Assembly (NCBI GenBank): GCA_013203475.1
Contig: JABMNV010000035.1
Span: forward strand, 1 to 37,220
From: Acidobacteriota bacterium
GTDB lineage: Bacteria; Acidobacteriota; Vicinamibacteria; Vicinamibacterales; SCN-69-37
Length of the DNA: 37,220 nucleotides
Direction: 5' to 3'
Position 1 is the first letter of the stretch, and each line of letters opens with the position of its first letter. Under the pieces are notes generated by a model. The model was not told the DNA's origin, did not search any database, and was given only the letters and a program-made list of their open reading frames with translations. Of the stretch, positions 9,576-17,645 are shown one piece after another. Made by a program: the position numbers and the translations under genes.

Positions 9576-11099
9576 GTGCCTAACTACGGCTTTGTGATCG
9601 ACCTGAAAATGTGCATCGGCTGTCATGCCTGCACGATCGCCTGCAAGGCAGAACACGACATTCCGGTGGGTGTGAACCGGTGCTGGGTCAAGACGGTCGA
9701 GAAGGGCCGATTTCCGGACGCTCAGCGATTGTTTCTTCCGGTGCTGTGTAATCAGTGCGAAGACGCCCCGTGCATGAACATCTGCCCAACGAGCGCCTTG
9801 TTCCGGCGCCGCGACGGCATTGTTGACCTCCACCCAGACGCCTGCATTGGCTGCAAAGCCTGCATGGCCGCCTGCCCCTATGACCAGCTCTTTATTGATC
9901 CGAACACGCGGACCGCAGAGAAGTGCAACTTCTGCGCAAATCGCATCGAGAACCAGTTGGAGCCGGCGTGCGTGAGTGTGTGCCCGACCGAATGCCGCAT
10001 CTTTGGTGACCTCGACGACCCGACGACCAAGGTCGCCCAGATTGTGCAGCGGGAGGCGTTCACGGTTCGCAAGCCGGAAAAGGGAACGGGACCCAAGGTC
10101 TTCTACCTTGGCGCAGACGACAGCATCATTCAGCCAGAGGTGGCCGCACGACCCTTCACCTTTCGAGAGGGAAAGGTGCACCTGCGGCCGCTGGGCGGCC
10201 GGGAGCCCGATCCGGAGTCTCCCGGCGAGCCGCGCGTGGACTACGATGTCCCCCACAAGAAAGCTTGGGGCATGGACCTTGTGCTTTACCTGCTGACCAA
10301 GGGCATCTCCACCGGCGCACTCTTCCTGGGTGCCATTCTCTGGCTCATGGGCGACCAGTCGGCTCTCTCCGGGTTTGCGGCACCGCTCGTGTCGTGCATC
10401 TTCGCAGCGCTGACGGCCGGTGTCCTCGTCATGGACCTCGAACGGCCTGAACGCTTCTATTACATCCTGACCCGACCGAACTGGAAGTCATGGATGGCGC
10501 GCGGCGCCTTTATCCTCACGGCGCATGGCGCCATTGCCGGCCTCTGGCTGCTGGCCTGGTGGCTGGGAGTCCCCGGACTCATCACACTGTGTGCCTGGCT
10601 GACACTGCCCGTCGCCTTGGCCGCCACCGGCTACACGGGCCTGCTCTTTGCGCAGGGGTTGGCACGAGACCTCTGGCAGGGGCCCCACGCCACGATCGAC
10701 CTGGTCGCACAGGCGGCCGCCGAGGGCAGCGCAGCGCTCCTGCTCGCGGCACTCTTTACTGACGTCGACCCGTGGGTGCTTCGCAGCCTGGGCTGGACGC
10801 TGGCCGGCGCCACGACGCTGCATCTGAGCATTCTGGTCACTGAAAACCTCCTGGCGCCGAGCCCAACGCTGCATCACGAACTGGCCGTTCGGGCGATCCG
10901 CGAAGGTGCCTACCGGCAACTGTTCTGGGTCGGCGCGCTCGGATTGGGTGGCCTGGCGCCACTCGTGCTCTTTGCCATCGCTGTCGCCTCGGGCTTCTCG
11001 ATGATCGCACTCGTGCCGATGGCCCTGGTGACCCTGGTGGGCAGCTTCGCGTGGGAATACATCTGGGTTGAAGCTGGGCAATGCGTCCCGATTTCTTGA
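9576..11099 (+). CDS. fused iron-sulfur/NrfD membrane subunit of a molybdoenzyme (PsrB-PsrC or SoeB-SoeC type)
   Basis: Electron-transfer and quinone-reacting parts of a complex iron-sulfur molybdoenzyme in one 507-residue chain. Residues 1-175 are a four-cluster ferredoxin: CIGCHACTIAC, CNQCEDAPCMNIC, CIGCKACMAACP and CNFC with CVSVC. A linker (about 176-235) leads to an NrfD/PsrC-like membrane domain of about eight helices (about 240-505), with LERPERFYYILTRPNWKSW, the usual NrfD loop. These two parts are normally separate genes; fused versions are known but less common. The start is GTG at 9576. The stop is 3 bp before an octamer array and the catalytic subunit gene follows, so the pair forms one operon. 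Confidence 0.9.
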   Translation: MPNYGFVIDLKMCIGCHACTIACKAEHDIPVGVNRCWVKTVEKGRFPDAQRLFLPVLCNQCEDAPCMNICPTSALFRRRDGIVDLHPDACIGCKACMAACPYDQLFIDPNTRTAEKCNFCANRIENQLEPACVSVCPTECRIFGDLDDPTTKVAQIVQREAFTVRKPEKGTGPKVFYLGADDSIIQPEVAARPFTFREGKVHLRPLGGREPDPESPGEPRVDYDVPHKKAWGMDLVLYLLTKGISTGALFLGAILWLMGDQSALSGFAAPLVSCIFAALTAGVLVMDLERPERFYYILTRPNWKSWMARGAFILTAHGAIAGLWLLAWWLGVPGLITLCAWLTLPVALAATGYTGLLFAQGLARDLWQGPHATIDLVAQAAAEGSAALLLAALFTDVDPWVLRSLGWTLAGATTLHLSILVTENLLAPSPTLHHELAVRAIREGAYRQLFWVGALGLGGLAPLVLFAIAVASGFSMIALVPMALVTLVGSFAWEYIWVEAGQCVPIS

Positions 11100-11101
11100 G
11101 T

Positions 11102-11157
11102 GGGGAGTTGGGGACATGGGGAGTTGGGGAAGCTGGGAATTGGGGTAATGAGGTAAT
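11102..11157. repeat. array A: seven degenerate 8-bp repeats, (G/T)(G/A)GGnnnT type
   Basis: Read in strict 8-base steps the stretch is GGGGAGTT, GGGGACAT, GGGGAGTT, GGGGAAGC, TGGGAATT, GGGGTAAT, GAGGTAAT. It starts 3 bp after the stop codon of the fused FeS-NrfD gene and its last unit supplies the A and T of the ATG that starts the catalytic subunit gene. The GGGG of the sixth unit may act as ribosome binding site. It is the same style of octamer as arrays at 16019 and 16562. Confidence 0.85.
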
Positions 11158-13846
11158 GGCTGAGTTTCGCTCGCACCCGCCCGTCTCTGACTGGGACAAC
11201 TACGTCGATTTCGAGTCGACCAGTTGGCCGAAGAAGGACCGGCGCAACTACTGGATCATCCCTACCATTTGCTTCAACTGCGAGTCAGGGTGCGGGGTGA
11301 TTGCGTACGTGGACAAGGACACGCTTGATGTCCGGAAGATCGAGGGCAACCCGCACCATCCGGGCAGCCGCGGCCGGACGTGCGCGAAGGGTGTGGTCAC
11401 GCCGAACCAGATCGAAGACCCGGACCGCATCCTGTATCCGCTCAAACGCGTCGGCAAACGGGGTGGTGGTGAATGGGCCCGCGTCACCTGGGATGAGGTC
11501 CTGGAAGATATCGGGGGCCGCATCCGCAAGGCCATTCTCGAAGACCGTCGCCGCGAGGTGATGTATCACGTCGGCCGTCCAGGCGAAGACGGCTACATGA
11601 ACCGGGTCTTGCAGGCCTGGGGCCTCGATAGCCACAACAGCCATACCAACGTCTGCTCGTCGTCTGCACGACTTGGACACTTTCTCTGGACGGGCGCTGA
11701 TCGGCCATCGCCCGACTACGCCCACGCCGAAACCATTCTGTTGCTGTCGTCACATCTGGAGTCGGGCCACTACTTCAACCCGCACGCCCAGCGCATCATG
11801 GAGGGCAAATCCCGCGGCGCCAAGCTCATCGTCATGGACCCGCGTCTGTCGAATACCTCGGCCAAGGCCGACGTCTGGATGCCGACCAACCCGGGCACGG
11901 AGAGCGCGGTGTTGCTGGCCATCGCCAAGCACCTGATTGACAACGGACAGTACAACCGCGAGTTCGTCAGGCGCTGGGTCAATTGGGATGTCTATTTGAA
12001 AGCGTGCCGACCTGAACTGCCTGTCACGTTCGAAGCATTCGAAGATGCGCTGAAGCAGGAGTACGAGATCTTCACGCCCGAGTACGCAGAGATTGAGTCG
12101 GGCGTCCCGGCCCACAAGGTGGTTGAAGCTGCCGAAGCCATCGCGGCGGCCGGCACGGCGTTTTCGACACACAGTTGGCGTGCTGCGGCCGCTGGGCACC
12201 TGTGGGGATGGCAGATCACTCGTTGCGTGTACTTTCTGGTGGTCCTCATGGGGGCCGTGGGCGAGAAGGGCGGCGTGAACCTGAACGACACGAACAAGTT
12301 CGTCCCGAAACATCCGAACCCTCCTCCGCCGCCGGAATACTGGAACGAGCTGCTCTTTCCCAAGGAGTTTCCGCTCGCGTTCTTCGAGATGAGTTTTCTC
12401 CTGCCGCACTTCCTGAAGGAAAAACGCGGCAAGCTCGACGTGTACTTCACACGCGTCTACAACCCGGTCTGGACCAATCCCGATGGGTTTTCGTGGATGG
12501 AAATGCTCGAAGACGAATCGCAGATTGGCCTCCACGTGGCACTGACCCCCATCTGGAGTGAGACCGCATGGTTCGCCGACTACATCCTGCCAATGGGCCT
12601 GGGCACGGAGCGACACGACACCATGAGCCAGGAGACCCACGCCGGGCGATGGCTGGGATTCCGCCAGCCCGTGAAACGGGTGGCACTCGAAAAGCGAGGG
12701 ACGTCGGTCACGCACACCCATGAGGCCAACCCGGGCGAGGTGTGGGAAGAGTCGGAGTTCTGGATCGCGCTGTCGTGGAAAATCGATCCCGATGGTTCGA
12801 TGGGCATTCGCAAGTTCTTCGAGTCGCCGTATCGTCCCGGCGAACAAGTGACCATGGACGAGTACTACGGCTGGATGTTTGAGAACTCCGTGCCCGGCTT
12901 GCCGGAGGCGGCTAAGAACGAGGGATTGACGCCGCTTGAGTACATGCGAAAGTACGGCGCCTTCAAGGTGGACGACAAGGCCTACAGCAAGGCGCACGAG
13001 CAACCGGCTGCCGACGGCGTGGACGTGGAAGGCCGGGCGCTGACTGGGTTTAATACGCCATCGAAGAAACTCGAATTCTTCTCCCCCACGCTCGCCGAAT
13101 GGGGGTGGCCCGAACACGCGATTCCGAAGTACGTGCCGGGCCATGTCTACTGGCGCGACCTGGATCGCTCGTCAGACGAGTTTGATCTTCTGCCAAACTT
13201 CCGTCTGCCGACGCTCATCCACACGCGCTCACCAGTGAAGTGGCTGTACGAGATCTCCCACAGCAACCCCCTCTGGATGGCCACGGGCGACGCAGCCAAG
13301 CTCGGCATCGCAACCGGAGACTTGGTCAAGGTGCAGACCGGGATCGGGTTTTTCGTCACGCGGGCGTGGGTCACCGAAGGCATTCGCCCAGGCGTCGTCG
13401 CGATGTCGCACCACTTGGGCCGGTGGAGACTGGATGAAGACAAGGGTGGCTCACGGAACGCCAGCTCGCTGGTTAAGATCACCAGGAGCGCCGACGGCAA
13501 GTACGAGATGCGACAGGTGCACGGGTCACAGCCGTTCGCCAGCAATGACCCTGACAGCGCGCGCGTCTGGTGGACGGAAGTGGGTGTGCACCAGAACCTG
13601 ACCTTTCCCGTCCAGCCCGACCCGGTGTCGGGCATGCACTGCTGGCATCAGCGTGTCAGGCTCGAAAAGGCCGGGGTCGATGATGCCTATGGCGATGTGA
13701 TGGTGGATACGGTCAAGTCTCACGAACTTTACCTGGAGTGGATGGCCAAAACCCGCCCGGCCCCAGGTCCGGATGGGACGCGGCGTCCCCGGTGGTTCGC
13801 CCGGCCGCTCAAACCCGTGCCGGCGGCGTACAATCTCAAGACGTAA
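11156..13846 (+). CDS. molybdopterin oxidoreductase catalytic subunit (CISM family; SoeA/PsrA-like)
   Basis: Large Mo-bisMGD subunit of about 896 residues. Near the N-terminus CFNCESGCG followed by RTCAKG gives the four cysteines of an FS0 [4Fe-4S] cluster. SHTNVCSSSARLG carries the probable Cys ligand to Mo. Later blocks KSRGAKLIVMDPRLSNTSAK and PTNPGTESA bind the pterin cofactor, and the C-terminal domain (from about 700) is the MGD-binding barrel. There is no twin-arginine signal, so the subunit is probably cytoplasmic, as in sulfite-oxidising SoeABC and unlike PsrA/PhsA. I prefer ATG 11156; the frame is open upstream to 11081 but this would translate the octamer repeats. Substrate (sulfite, polysulfide, other) is inferred only; the nearby TauE/SafE exporter favours sulfite. 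Confidence 0.87.
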   Translation: MAEFRSHPPVSDWDNYVDFESTSWPKKDRRNYWIIPTICFNCESGCGVIAYVDKDTLDVRKIEGNPHHPGSRGRTCAKGVVTPNQIEDPDRILYPLKRVGKRGGGEWARVTWDEVLEDIGGRIRKAILEDRRREVMYHVGRPGEDGYMNRVLQAWGLDSHNSHTNVCSSSARLGHFLWTGADRPSPDYAHAETILLLSSHLESGHYFNPHAQRIMEGKSRGAKLIVMDPRLSNTSAKADVWMPTNPGTESAVLLAIAKHLIDNGQYNREFVRRWVNWDVYLKACRPELPVTFEAFEDALKQEYEIFTPEYAEIESGVPAHKVVEAAEAIAAAGTAFSTHSWRAAAAGHLWGWQITRCVYFLVVLMGAVGEKGGVNLNDTNKFVPKHPNPPPPPEYWNELLFPKEFPLAFFEMSFLLPHFLKEKRGKLDVYFTRVYNPVWTNPDGFSWMEMLEDESQIGLHVALTPIWSETAWFADYILPMGLGTERHDTMSQETHAGRWLGFRQPVKRVALEKRGTSVTHTHEANPGEVWEESEFWIALSWKIDPDGSMGIRKFFESPYRPGEQVTMDEYYGWMFENSVPGLPEAAKNEGLTPLEYMRKYGAFKVDDKAYSKAHEQPAADGVDVEGRALTGFNTPSKKLEFFSPTLAEWGWPEHAIPKYVPGHVYWRDLDRSSDEFDLLPNFRLPTLIHTRSPVKWLYEISHSNPLWMATGDAAKLGIATGDLVKVQTGIGFFVTRAWVTEGIRPGVVAMSHHLGRWRLDEDKGGSRNASSLVKITRSADGKYEMRQVHGSQPFASNDPDSARVWWTEVGVHQNLTFPVQPDPVSGMHCWHQRVRLEKAGVDDAYGDVMVDTVKSHELYLEWMAKTRPAPGPDGTRRPRWFARPLKPVPAAYNLKT

Positions 13847-14883: not shown

Positions 14884-15192
14884 TCAGGCGCCAAGCGCCC
14901 ACTGCATCTTCCGCACGATCGCAAAACCCAACAGAACAAGAGCGGCGACAGCCGCCAGGACAAACGACCATTCCCTGCGGCGCCATTCGTCGATCAAGAC
15001 GCCGATCACCGTCAGCACCGGAAGAGCCACGAGCAACGCAAGCCCCGCCCAGGCCAGGGCAGCCGCGGCCGCCGCCGCCGGTCCCGACACCACAAGCGAG
15101 AGCACCAGCCCCATCCCAAGTGAGGCAGCCGTCGTCATCAGGCCCATCCGGATGACGCCGCGCAACGCAGGAGGAGATGTGTCGTCAGTCAT
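14884..15192 (-). CDS. DUF1634-like small membrane protein
   Basis: 102 residues with three predicted membrane helices (about 14-36, 40-66 and 77-94) and a short charged loop IDEWRRREWS before the last. Size, topology and position directly after a TauE/SafE gene match the DUF1634 family, which is commonly encoded beside such exporters. Function unknown; probably an accessory of the transporter. Its ATG overlaps the exporter stop codon (ATGA at 15192-15189), so the two are coupled. The gene ends 8 bp from the convergent GAF gene. Confidence 0.7.
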   Translation of the reverse strand: MTDDTSPPALRGVIRMGLMTTAASLGMGLVLSLVVSGPAAAAAAALAWAGLALLVALPVLTVIGVLIDEWRRREWSFVLAAVAALVLLGFAIVRKMQWALGA

Positions 15193-16001
15193 TTGAAGAA
15201 GAGGTATCGGGACGCCACAACGGCCAGGACAAGCGCCATGAATATTTTCAACGATCGGACCTTGACCTTGGCGCCAACCCAGAATCCCAGTCGAGAACCG
15301 ACCATCGCCCCCAACACGGCTCCGGCGGCCAACATCGGCGCAGTCAGATTGCCACGCGCATAGCTATCAAGAACGCCCGGAAACGCGGTCACCCCGATAA
15401 TAGCCGCACTGGTCGCCGCCGCCACACGCATCGGCACGCCACACCACGAGTTCAGAGCCGGCACAATCAGCACGCCCCCACCCACGCCGGCCAGCGTCGA
15501 AATGACACCCGCGCCACCCGCCACACCGACGGCCAACGGCAACCGGCGAAGTCGATACGCCACCTCGGTGCCGGTCTCAGGATCTTCGACCCGACCACCC
15601 AGTGTGCCCAGGTCCTCGACCACGCCATGCAGAACGTTTCGATGATTGAGCCTGGATACCATGACCATGGCCACCAGAGCCGCCGTTGCGCCGAACACCC
15701 GTTCCTGCCCACCTGGCGAGAGGTAGTCGAGCAAGAATGTGCCCGCGATCGCCCCCGCCACCGAAAACACCTGCAGCACCAAGGCGAGCCTGACATTGGC
15801 AAACTTCCGGCCGGCTGAAGTCAGCGACACAAAGTTCGACGTCGAGATGACCGTGATCAGACTGATGGCCGTCGCCTGCCCGATGGGAAGCCCCACGCCA
15901 ATATTGAGAATCGGCACCAGAAAGATCCCGCCGCCGAGCCCCAACAGCGCTCCCACGCTGCCAGCACCGACGCCGGCGAGAAAAGTGAACAGGACAAACA
16001 C
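15189..16001 (-). CDS. TauE/SafE-family membrane permease (probable sulfite or organosulfonate exporter)
   Basis: 270 residues, the family's usual size, with about eight membrane helices in two related halves. Each half has the characteristic Gly-rich re-entrant block: GALLGLGGGIFLVPIL near the N-terminus and STLAGVGGGVLIVPAL in the middle. Known members export sulfite, sulfoacetate or taurine-derived anions, or take part in sulfur transport. The start is GTG at 16001; an out-of-frame ATG lies just upstream. The octamer array B begins 17 bp upstream, so the repeats sit in the promoter or leader region. The neighbouring molybdoenzyme suggests a joint role in sulfite disposal, which is inference. 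Confidence 0.88.
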   Translation of the reverse strand: MFVLFTFLAGVGAGSVGALLGLGGGIFLVPILNIGVGLPIGQATAISLITVISTSNFVSLTSAGRKFANVRLALVLQVFSVAGAIAGTFLLDYLSPGGQERVFGATAALVAMVMVSRLNHRNVLHGVVEDLGTLGGRVEDPETGTEVAYRLRRLPLAVGVAGGAGVISTLAGVGGGVLIVPALNSWCGVPMRVAAATSAAIIGVTAFPGVLDSYARGNLTAPMLAAGAVLGAMVGSRLGFWVGAKVKVRSLKIFMALVLAVVASRYLFFK

Positions 16002-16018
16002 GTGGGGTCATTGTAAAT

Positions 16019-16066
16019 GAGGCAATGGGGCAATGGGGCAATGGGGCAATGCCGGAATTGGGGAAT
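16019..16066. repeat. array B: six 8-bp repeats, consensus GGGGCAAT
   Basis: In 8-base steps: GAGGCAAT, GGGGCAAT three times, GCCGGAAT, TGGGGAAT, followed by a looser GGAATGGGGGGATGG. It lies between the divergent TauE/SafE and S23-like genes, beginning 17 bp upstream of the exporter start. Units share the G-rich head and AAT tail with arrays A and C. Confidence 0.88.
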
Positions 16067-16194
16067 GGAATGGGGGGATGGCACAAATTGCCACGCTATT
16101 TTCGTCCCTTGAGTGGATTTATTGCCAGCCCTGGGCCGGTGCTTCCGCTTTGTCAGGCGTGACGACTGGCGCGCTCCTTGCTCGATCTGGCCTG

Positions 16195-16563
16195 ATGGAT
16201 GCGCGCGGAGTTCGCCTTGATGCCCTGGAAGCGCGCACGCGGCGCTTCGCCGTTGACGTCGTGCGCACTTGCCAGAAGATCCCAGTCACGTCGGTGCTTG
16301 GGGTGATGGCGCGACAGCTGGTCAAAGCCGCAACGAGCGTGGCCGTCAACCACCGTGCGGTGCGTCGGTCGCGCTCATTGCGGGAATTCGCGGCGAAACT
16401 CCAGATCGTCAACGAAGAGATTGATGAAGCAGTCCACTGGCTCGAAGTCATTCAAGAAACAGATGACGCAGCCACTGCCGACGTCAGCAAACTGATACAG
16501 GAGGGTCGAGAACTCAGAGCAATCTTCGCAACCGCCAGAAAGACAACGAGACTAGGGCGATGA
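16195..16563 (+). CDS. four-helix-bundle protein (S23/IVP-like, TIGR02436 type)
   Basis: 122 residues from ATG 16195, the usual size for the S23 ribosomal intervening-sequence protein family. Recognisable blocks are the first long helix (residues about 8-27, FAVDVVRTCQKI), QLVKAATSVAVNHRAVRRSRS with a basic patch, and LQIVNEEIDEAVHWLEVIQE. Family members form pentameric bundles; the related Avd protein binds RNA in diversity-generating retroelements, but no reverse transcriptase is present here. The start is uncertain: no clear ribosome binding site, and the frame is open upstream into the repeat array. The stop codon TGA at 16561 overlaps the first unit of array C. Function unknown; nucleic-acid binding is plausible. 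Confidence 0.78.
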   Translation: MDARGVRLDALEARTRRFAVDVVRTCQKIPVTSVLGVMARQLVKAATSVAVNHRAVRRSRSLREFAAKLQIVNEEIDEAVHWLEVIQETDDAATADVSKLIQEGRELRAIFATARKTTRLGR

Positions 16564-16726
16564 GGCAATGAGGCAATGAGGCAATTGGGCAATGCGGCAA
16601 TGGGCAATGGGCAATGGGCAATGGCGGCATTGAGGCAATGCGGGTAATGCTGGCACTACAGCATTGCGGCATTCCGGCATTGCCCAATTGCCCAATTGCC
16701 CAATTGCCCAATTGCCCAATTGCCTC
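16562..16726. repeat. array C: inverted (head-to-head) octamer array between convergent genes
   Basis: Left arm: GAGGCAAT three times, TGGGCAAT, GCGGCAAT, then three 7-base GGGCAAT and looser units. Right arm is the complement orientation: ATTGCGGC, ATTCCGGC, ATTGCCCA five times, ATTGCCTC (16663-16726). The two arms could fold into one long imperfect hairpin with its centre near 16655. The array fills the whole gap: it begins at the S23 stop codon and its last unit contains part of the panE stop codon. It could act as a two-way terminator. Confidence 0.88.
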
Positions 16727-17645
16727 ATTCTTCAGCGTGCGGTCGAAGAACTCCGTAGAGCGCACGCATCAGGGGCGTGTCTACGCCCAGGGCTCGGCCG
16801 CGCCGAATGACCGAACCCAGGAGGGATTCGACCTCGATGCGTTTGCCCACCGACAGATCGATCAGGAGTGACGATCGCGTCGACGCTGGAATCTCGCCAA
16901 TCGCCGTCTCGATCTTGCCCGCGACGTCTTCGGCCACGCTGATCCCGGAGGCACGGGCCACACGCTCGACTTCGCGCACGGCCTCCATGAATGCTGCCCG
17001 AGACTCCTCGTCTGCCCACACGGGTCCGATCGGTAACCGCGCGGCACCCGTGAACGCAGCGAATGGCGCGAGGTAGATGAACTTCTCCCACAACGGAATC
17101 CTGGCATCTGCCACCGGCTCAGCGTGGATATCGGCGGTCAGCATGAGATCTGCCAGAGCACGCACGCGTGCAGACACATCTGCGCCGGGACGAAAGACCT
17201 CTCCGAAAACGATGCGCCGGCGCGAGCCGGTCTGGCGGATCACGCCAGGTCCGTCGATGGCCGTTGCGATGTACGTCGGACCAGCAATCACGGCGTCCTC
17301 CCCCACAACGCGCGCCAGGTCGTCGGCACTGTCGACGCCGTTCTGCAAAGTCAGTACGGTCGTCGCGGCGCCCATCAGGGGTTTTACCAAAGGAAACACC
17401 GTGTCGTTGTCGTACGTCTTGACGGCAACGATCACCACGTCGACGGGACCGATAGCGTCCGGATTGTCTTCTGCGGCCACCTTGACCGTAAAGTCGCCCT
17501 GCACGCCAATAATGCGCAGGCCGTTGGCCCGAATCGCGTCACGGTGCGCACCCCTGGCCACAAAGCTGACGTCGGCGCCAACTCTCGCCAGCAGCGCTCC
17601 GTAGTACCCACCAACCGCGCCAGCCCCCATGATCGCGATTTTCAT
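16725..17645 (-). CDS. panE: ketopantoate reductase (ApbA/PanE family)
   Basis: Reduces 2-dehydropantoate to pantoate with NADPH for coenzyme A synthesis. From ATG 17645 the protein has 306 residues, normal for the family. Visible are the N-terminal Rossmann motif MKIAIMGAGAVGGYYGALLA, the VAVKTYD and TLQNGVDS blocks, and the C-terminal helical domain with the catalytic Lys in PLWEKFIYLAPF and the S-S-L-L-I-D-L pattern near residue 262. The start overlaps the upstream peptidase stop codon (ATGA at 17645-17642); the frame is open upstream but not conserved. It is last in a four-gene operon. Many ApbA-family proteins act on other 2-keto acids, so the exact substrate is less sure than the fold. 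Confidence 0.88.
   Translation of the reverse strand: MKIAIMGAGAVGGYYGALLARVGADVSFVARGAHRDAIRANGLRIIGVQGDFTVKVAAEDNPDAIGPVDVVIVAVKTYDNDTVFPLVKPLMGAATTVLTLQNGVDSADDLARVVGEDAVIAGPTYIATAIDGPGVIRQTGSRRRIVFGEVFRPGADVSARVRALADLMLTADIHAEPVADARIPLWEKFIYLAPFAAFTGAARLPIGPVWADEESRAAFMEAVREVERVARASGISVAEDVAGKIETAIGEIPASTRSSLLIDLSVGKRIEVESLLGSVIRRGRALGVDTPLMRALYGVLRPHAEE

What the first reader, a model, noticed from the sequence alone, without database searches (positions are those of the whole stretch)
16019..16726. S23/IVP-like gene framed by two octamer arrays: possible repeat-borne unit
A single small four-helix-bundle gene (16195-16563) lies between array B (six units of GGGGCAAT type) and array C (inverted octamers). 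Both arrays use the same 8-bp unit, in a window where otherwise only one other array exists. The S23 family is known from insertions in 23S rRNA and, as Avd, as an RNA-binding partner of reverse transcriptases. A free-standing copy with repeats on both sides could be a mobile or repeat-maintaining unit of undescribed type: a protein that binds the repeat or its transcript. The pairing may also be chance.
Basis: partly seen in the sequence, partly recalled or inferred. Interest (0 to 1): 0.72.

Follow-up and report, generated by a model that had tools for sequence, protein, structure and literature searches.

The report
Repeat-framed S23 gene cassettes in bacteria
A small gene of unknown function (the S23 family) is almost always found between two mirror-image stacks of 7-9-letter DNA repeats, in bacteria of many phyla; the gene and its repeats come and go as one unit, which offers a candidate source for the puzzling short repeats scattered through many bacterial genomes.

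Summary
The window gene (16195-16563) is an S23/TIGR02436 four-helix-bundle gene inside a 714-bp unit (16016-16729) whose ends are inverted arrays of one octamer. Of 228 distinct S23 loci from many phyla, 183 (80%) carry complementary inverted arms, against 26 with comparable direct similarity; 1 of 108 control positions in the same loci does. Units of 7, 8 or 9 nt differ between loci but agree across the gene. Orthologous sites show the whole unit (panE-TauE in this genome; accB-accC in seven Lysobacterales genomes, 440-470 bp), a gene-less hairpin, or an empty gap of about 10 bp. One hairpin keeps a remnant of the lost interior. Dispersed gene-less arrays tend to use the units of their own genome's S23 frames, including the known GGGAATC repeats of xanthomonads. 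The own genome has no reverse transcriptase, and RAYT genes lack such arrays. Best reading: an IVS-like cassette living outside rRNA, whose pentameric protein probably binds the repeat hairpin; gene loss leaves solo hairpins. That S23 itself drives dispersal is inferred, not shown: several array-rich genomes hold no detected S23. I found no paper linking the two, in an open-access library only.

The parts
16016..16081 (+). Left (outer) arm, array B: 4.5 good GGGGCAAT-type octamers (16016-16051) plus a degenerate tail to 16081
   Evidence: TRF score 65; 16016-16067 is complementary to 16678-16729 over 52 nt at 85%
16195..16563 (+). S23 / 23S rRNA-IVP-like four-helix-bundle gene, 122 aa (the frame stays open from an ATG at 16033 inside array B)
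   Evidence: TIGR02436 61 bits, PF05635 36.8 bits; AlphaFold pLDDT 89, four helices; Foldseek to 2RLD, 2GSC, Avd 4DWL
16556..16640 (+). Array C, first half: about 11 direct GGCAATGA-type units, overlapping the S23 stop codon
   Evidence: TRF score 98
16661..16729 (-). Array C, second half: inverted units (ATTGCCCA), the right outer arm; it forms a hairpin with the first half and an inverted repeat with array B
   Evidence: TRF scores 35 and 92; inverted repeats I1-I6; predicted fold z = -6.2
16016..16729 (.). The whole unit (arms + S23 + arms), filling the TauE-panE intergenic region
   Evidence: Orthologous intervals in six congeners: about 70, 71, 54 and 25 bp with solo arrays; 60 and 6 bp without
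15189..16001 (-). TauE/SafE-family neighbour (left flank, not part of the unit)
   Evidence: PF01925 136.6 bits
16725..17645 (-). panE-like ketopantoate reductase neighbour (right flank); its stop codon lies inside the terminal repeat
   Evidence: PF02558 134 bits, PF08546 86 bits; sequence
11101..11145 (+). Dispersed gene-less TGGGGAA-type array; same unit type as the frame of another S23 gene of this genome (L005)
   Evidence: TRF scores 46 and 53; match to an own-genome S23 frame

Best explanation
The locus is one copy of a widespread element type, here called an S23 repeat-framed cassette. It is typically 0.4-0.6 kb, with an S23 gene in the loop between two inverted arms made of short tandem units (mostly 7, 8 or 9 nt, about 35 nt per arm). 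SHOWN: the frame, its generality over phyla, the same unit on both sides of a locus, co-inheritance of unit and S23 lineage at unrelated positions, presence or absence of the whole unit at orthologous intergenic sites, and one solo hairpin left by internal deletion. INFERRED: the transcript folds on its arms like the 23S rRNA intervening sequence (IVS). The S23 pentamer binds the tandem units, perhaps one per subunit (compare the ring protein TRAP, from general knowledge), which would favour arms that stay alike. Cassettes enter short intergenic gaps, and loss of the gene leaves hairpins that persist as the scattered heptamer or octamer arrays. How the DNA is copied to new sites is unknown; no nuclease or reverse transcriptase is encoded in the unit.
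For: Inverted arms: 183/228 distinct loci, direct 26/228; 54/79 GTDB loci against 1/108 control positions; 9/10 plasmid loci; 28/30; 27/30 Lysobacterales. Unit and gene lineage travel together: 35/55 nearest non-syntenic pairs at 65% identity or more share a unit, random pairs 3.8%. accB-accC: 7 filled (440-470 bp), 3 solo hairpins with other units, most others 0-21 bp. Solo hairpin with interior remnant in G013 where G010 has the S23 unit. Dispersed arrays match own-genome S23 frames in 32/56 cases, 8.6% per foreign-genus genome; 39/59 in three cyanobacteria, about a third for another cyanobacterium. Six of 7 genomes with GGGAWTC-framed S23 are GGGAATC-rich, 5 of 144 others. Arms change unit in concert at a Rhizobiales site. 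Pentamer relatives 2GSC, 2RLD, Avd.
Against: Binding of repeats by S23 is untested. Array-rich genomes without detected S23 exist: G115 and G134, G224 and G233. At panE-TauE, solo arrays occur in four congeners and S23 only in this genome, so the gene may have entered an existing array. No target-site duplication could be defined. Some sites are conserved in place over genera, so movement is rare. About 20% of S23 loci show no frame by this measure.
Confidence: 0.7

Rival explanations
1. The arrays come first. Tandem-repeat hairpins arise and spread by another, host-encoded route, and S23 genes are passengers that settle in them because such sites tolerate insertion.
For: Solo arrays at panE-TauE in four congeners without S23; array-rich genomes without detected S23; different units at the same slot in G010 and G013.
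Against: Unit type and S23 lineage are inherited together at non-syntenic places; a passenger should land in arrays of any unit. Arms match across the gene in 80% of loci. The G013 hairpin carries the lost interior.
Confidence: 0.2
2. S23 is a resident RNA-binding regulator. The dispersed arrays are its target sites in many transcripts, kept by selection, and the frame is its own autoregulatory site; mobility is incidental.
For: Conserved position next to nuoE and at another site in Rhizobiales with concerted unit change; same-strand bias where both neighbours run the same way, 70 against 35; cassettes between accB and accC and in CRISPR I-D operons. Post-transcriptional roles were proposed for TAACTGA repeats (PMC4679880).
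Against: Dispersed hairpins lie at positions that differ between congeners and change unit, which is not expected of a conserved regulon. Most Lysobacterales genomes lack S23.
Confidence: 0.2
3. REP/RAYT-type spread: a Y1 transposase mobilises the arrays.
For: Y1_Tnp genes occur in 12 of 14 family genomes.
Against: Arrays flank 1 of 20 Y1_Tnp genes and none on both sides; their flanks show repeats with about equal direct and inverted similarity.
Confidence: 0.03
4. Diversity-generating or other retroelement: S23 acts as Avd with a reverse transcriptase.
For: Fold similarity to Avd 4DWL and to the DGR ribonucleoprotein 8UB7.
Against: No RVT_1 in the own genome; 1 of 14 family genomes has any.
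Confidence: 0.02
5. Chance pairing of a common repeat with a small gene.
For: The octamer family is common in the genome (244 matches against 23 for the reversed pattern).
Against: All statistics above, p below 1e-20 against controls.
Confidence: 0.01

Closest known systems
Intervening sequence (IVS) of 23S rRNA with S23p ORF (Coxiella, Leptospira; PMC4990558)
   Same: S23-family ORF in the loop between complementary ends; total length 428-444 nt in Coxiella against a 400-550 bp mode here; proposed long ago to be a mobile element whose function and origin are unclear.
   Different: Here the sites are protein-gene intergenic regions, the arms are tandem 7-9-nt arrays whose unit differs by locus, and gene-less hairpin copies are scattered in the genome.
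Heptamer arrays of Xanthomonas and Nostoc (GGGAATC, GGGGAYT; PMC4692102)
   Same: Same unit and same convergent inverted pairs (70-75 per genome in that paper); Lysobacterales genomes rich in GGGAATC mostly hold an S23 framed by it.
   Different: That paper does not mention S23 and found the repeats generally not associated with mobile elements.
TAACTGA repeats of Beggiatoaceae, cyanobacteria and Bacteroidetes (PMC4679880)
   Same: Intergenic heptamer arrays with patchy distribution; the author raised a repeat-binding protein as the possible mobile element. Two TAACTGA-rich Nostocales genomes hold S23 genes framed by that unit.
   Different: No S23 link was made there; mostly direct repeats near start codons.
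RAYT / REP (BIME) system
   Same: One protein-coding copy framed by repeats, with many gene-less repeats elsewhere in the genome (works like).
   Different: S23 has no HUH nuclease; repeats are tandem arrays with variable unit, not fixed palindromes.
Avd of diversity-generating retroelements
   Same: Four-helix bundle of the same fold.
   Different: No reverse transcriptase in the own genome; free-standing gene.

Membership tests
S23 / TIGR02436 / PF05635 protein family | Profile score over curated cut-off | tested here: met
   61 bits against 24; 36.8 against 33.8
S23 / TIGR02436 / PF05635 protein family | Four-helix bundle like 2GSC and 2RLD | tested here: met
   Model pLDDT 89; TM 0.65-0.84 to 2RLD and 2GSC chains
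S23 / TIGR02436 / PF05635 protein family | Pentameric assembly | not testable with these tools
   2GSC and 2RLD each hold five chains; no oligomer was modelled for the window protein
23S rRNA IVS element | S23 ORF between complementary ends | tested here: met
23S rRNA IVS element | Inserted in a 23S rRNA helix | tested here: not met
   Lies between TauE and panE genes; no rRNA among Rfam matches in the window stretch or in 20 other S23 loci
23S rRNA IVS element | RNase III excision of the transcript | not testable with these tools
   Needs RNA work
RAYT / REP system | Y1 (HUH) transposase gene in the repeat-framed unit | tested here: not met
   Only the S23 domain in the unit; Y1_Tnp genes elsewhere lack such arrays
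Diversity-generating retroelement | Reverse transcriptase | tested here: not met
   No RVT_1 match in G000
MITE / TIR transposon | Terminal inverted repeats | tested here: met
   52-nt ends at 85%
MITE / TIR transposon | Target-site duplication at a clean empty site | tested here: inconclusive
   Empty sites found but too diverged to read a duplication

The most novel reading that the evidence does not exclude
S23 proteins are the drivers of a class of mobile element found across bacterial phyla: a pentameric, non-enzymatic protein recognises tandem 7-9-nt units in a hairpin and brings about their copying to new intergenic sites with host enzymes. Each S23 lineage evolves with its own unit. 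The scattered short-tandem-repeat arrays of xanthomonads, cyanobacteria, Beggiatoaceae and others are its gene-less offspring, and the 23S rRNA intervening sequences are the special case that landed in rRNA.
Probability: 0.4. Interest if true: 0.95.

Novelty: new variant of a known kind. Interest (0 to 1): 0.86.

Why it matters
Two old loose ends meet here: S23 genes (function and origin of IVS elements described as unclear, PMC4990558) and the heptamer arrays of xanthomonads, cyanobacteria and Beggiatoaceae (no mechanism evident, PMC4679880; not linked to mobile elements, PMC4692102). If the arrays belong to S23 cassettes, a testable protein-repeat pair exists for each unit, and 'four helix bundle protein' genes can be read as markers of an element rather than of a ribosomal function. 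It also warns that contigs may break there: three of the five S23 genes of this genome lie at contig ends.

Tried and rejected
Chance: rejected by controls. RAYT as driver: arrays at 1/20 Y1_Tnp genes. Reverse transcriptase or DGR: absent in the own genome. 23S rRNA insertion: no rRNA near 20 S23 loci. Rfam: only sub-threshold miRNA-precursor matches caused by the hairpin. Presence of S23 as a strict need for arrays: not upheld (G115, G134, G224, G233 are array-rich without detected S23; G178 is rich in TAACTGA but its readable S23 frame is of another unit). The TAACTGA test in Nostocales is weak: both-sided TAACTGA frames in 2 of 8 rich genomes, one-sided in a third, none in the poor ones. 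First genome-contig query with too diverse an alignment failed. Early per-locus left/right labels ignored strand for 12 loci; the inverted-versus-direct statistics do not depend on it, and strand was corrected before the strand-asymmetry test. Phylogenetic non-independence was not modelled; p values are descriptive.

Full report
WHAT IS THERE. The gene at 16195-16563 is a member of the S23 / 23S rRNA-IVP family: TIGR02436 61 bits against a cut-off of 24, PF05635 36.8 bits against 33.8. AlphaFold gives four helices at pLDDT 89, and Foldseek finds the S23 chains 2RLD and 2GSC and, further off, Avd of the Bordetella phage retroelement. 2GSC and 2RLD each contain five chains of the protein. The gene lies in a unit from 16016 to 16729. 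The outer 52 nt are inverted repeats, 85% complementary, made of octamers (both ends begin AATGAGGCAAT). Array C is itself a hairpin: direct units (16556-16640), then inverted units (16661-16729). The unit fills the space between a TauE/SafE gene and a panE gene; the panE stop codon lies in the terminal repeat. The predicted RNA fold is stronger than shuffles (z -6.2).

IS IT GENERAL? The own genome has five S23 genes, all flanked by short tandem repeats, but of different units. In the family (14 genomes, 53 S23 genes), 42 of 48 usable loci have an array within 400 bp on at least one side and 28 on both. Of 247 control genes from random stretches of five of these genomes, 42 and 3 do. The arms are inverted: local complementarity of left and right flank has a median score of 56.5 against 22 for direct similarity, 21 between flanks of different loci and 22 at controls. 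The same holds for ten plasmid loci, mostly cyanobacterial (9/10), 79 loci from GTDB species of many phyla (54/79 against 1/108 control positions in the same loci), 30 loci from twelve of those genomes (28/30), 30 Lysobacterales loci (27/30), 20 more (16/20) and 13 more cyanobacterial ones (10/13). Over 228 distinct genes, 183 have inverted arms and 26 have direct similarity of the same strength. The paired arm has a median of 35 nt, its period is mostly 7, then 8, seldom 9, and the unit is most often 400-550 bp long. The inward-running strand is G-rich: upstream arms G over C in 67, C over G in 8; downstream arms C over G in 66, G over C in 8.

UNIT AND GENE BELONG TOGETHER. For nearest S23 relatives at unrelated positions, the arm unit is the same in 35 of 55 pairs at 65% protein identity or more, against 3.8% of random pairs. 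At a conserved Rhizobiales site next to nuoE, orthologues carry either GTGAATG or GGCAGTC arms, changed on both sides in concert (nuoE named from its Pfam domain PF01257 and general knowledge).

SITES WITH AND WITHOUT. Orthologous panE-TauE intervals in the genus: 727 bp with arms and S23 in the own genome; solo arrays of the same unit in G008, G009, G010 and G013; no array in G011 and G012. The accB-accC junction in Lysobacterales: seven genomes with arms and S23 (440-470 bp), arms beginning a few bases after the accB stop and ending at or close to the accC start; three with gene-less hairpins of other units (89, 107 and 207 bp); three with other longer spacers; the other junctions read are 0-21 bp. 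G010 against G013: the S23 unit L049 in G010 faces, at the same place in G013, a hairpin with the same arm unit that retains part of the interior next to the arm, so gene loss by internal deletion can make a solo hairpin. At a second place G013 has an S23 unit where G010 has a hairpin of another unit.

DISPERSED ARRAYS. In random stretches of family genomes, 32 of 56 arrays match an S23 frame of their own genome over the equivalent of 13 exact bases; the mean per foreign-genus genome is 8.6%. In three cyanobacteria it is 39 of 59, against about a third for another cyanobacterium. In 151 Lysobacterales genomes, eleven are rich in the GGGAATC array known from Xanthomonas and Nostoc (PMC4692102); nine of these have S23, against 42 of 140 (p = 0.001). 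Of the seven genomes with a GGGAWTC-framed S23 in accB-accC six are rich, against five of the 144 others (p = 2e-7). Shared ancestry is not corrected for. Exceptions matter: G115 and G134, and in Nostocales G224 and G233, are rich in arrays without detected S23. The TAACTGA test gave two rich genomes with TAACTGA-framed S23, a one-sided third, and none among the poor genomes, which is suggestive only.

HOW IT MAY WORK. Shown: frame, generality, co-inheritance, presence/absence, one internal deletion. Inferred: the arms pair in the transcript as in the 23S rRNA IVS, which has the same plan (S23 ORF in the loop of complementary ends, 428-444 nt in Coxiella; PMC4990558). The pentamer binds the tandem units, perhaps one per subunit; median arm length equals five heptamers, a weak hint. 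Binding would favour arms that stay alike and explain why unit and protein change together. Copying to new sites needs host enzymes; none is encoded, no reverse transcriptase was found in the own genome, and RAYT genes do not carry such arrays. The main rival, that S23 genes are passengers of arrays spread otherwise, is not excluded; the panE-TauE history fits it equally well.

NOVELTY. S23 proteins, rRNA IVS elements and heptamer arrays are each known. Searches of the open-access library found no paper that links S23 genes to inverted short tandem repeats outside rRNA; subscription papers and most preprints were not covered. MacGregor (PMC4679880) suggested that a repeat-binding protein could be the mobile element; S23 is a concrete candidate. 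I file the finding as a new variant of a known kind (IVS-like S23 elements), with a real chance that the whole class deserves a name of its own.

Noticed in passing
window 11101-11145: A TGGGGAA-type octamer array sits at the start of a molybdopterin oxidoreductase ORF (11081-13846); read as coding it gives LGTWGVGEAGNWGN, so the true start is probably further downstream. Its unit matches the frame of another S23 gene of the genome (L005).
   Followed up: partly
L104 (Anabaena sp. 90 plasmid) and L110 (Pseudanabaena galeata plasmid): S23 genes with heptamer arms lie between cas6 and cas4 of CRISPR operons (type I-D in Anabaena) in two different cyanobacteria.
   Followed up: no
L431, L432, L435 (genome G199): TIGR02436 matches in longer open frames (200-222 aa) without inverted arms in a genome whose other S23 genes often have arms; they may be a separate, Avd-like subfamily.
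   Followed up: no
G000 contigs C44, C66, C204: Three of five S23 genes of the own genome lie at contig ends, so the repeats probably break assemblies and S23 copies may be undercounted in drafts.
   Followed up: partly
L253, L254, L275-L277, L297, L307, L308: In seven Lysobacterales genomes the S23 cassette sits between accB and accC, just before the accC start codon. The solved S23 protein Xcc0516 (2GSC) is from Xanthomonas campestris and may be this copy.
   Followed up: partly
L360, L361 and others in Nostoc (G015): Several S23 copies are split over two frames or hold stops; at least one (L361) still has complementary arms.
   Followed up: no
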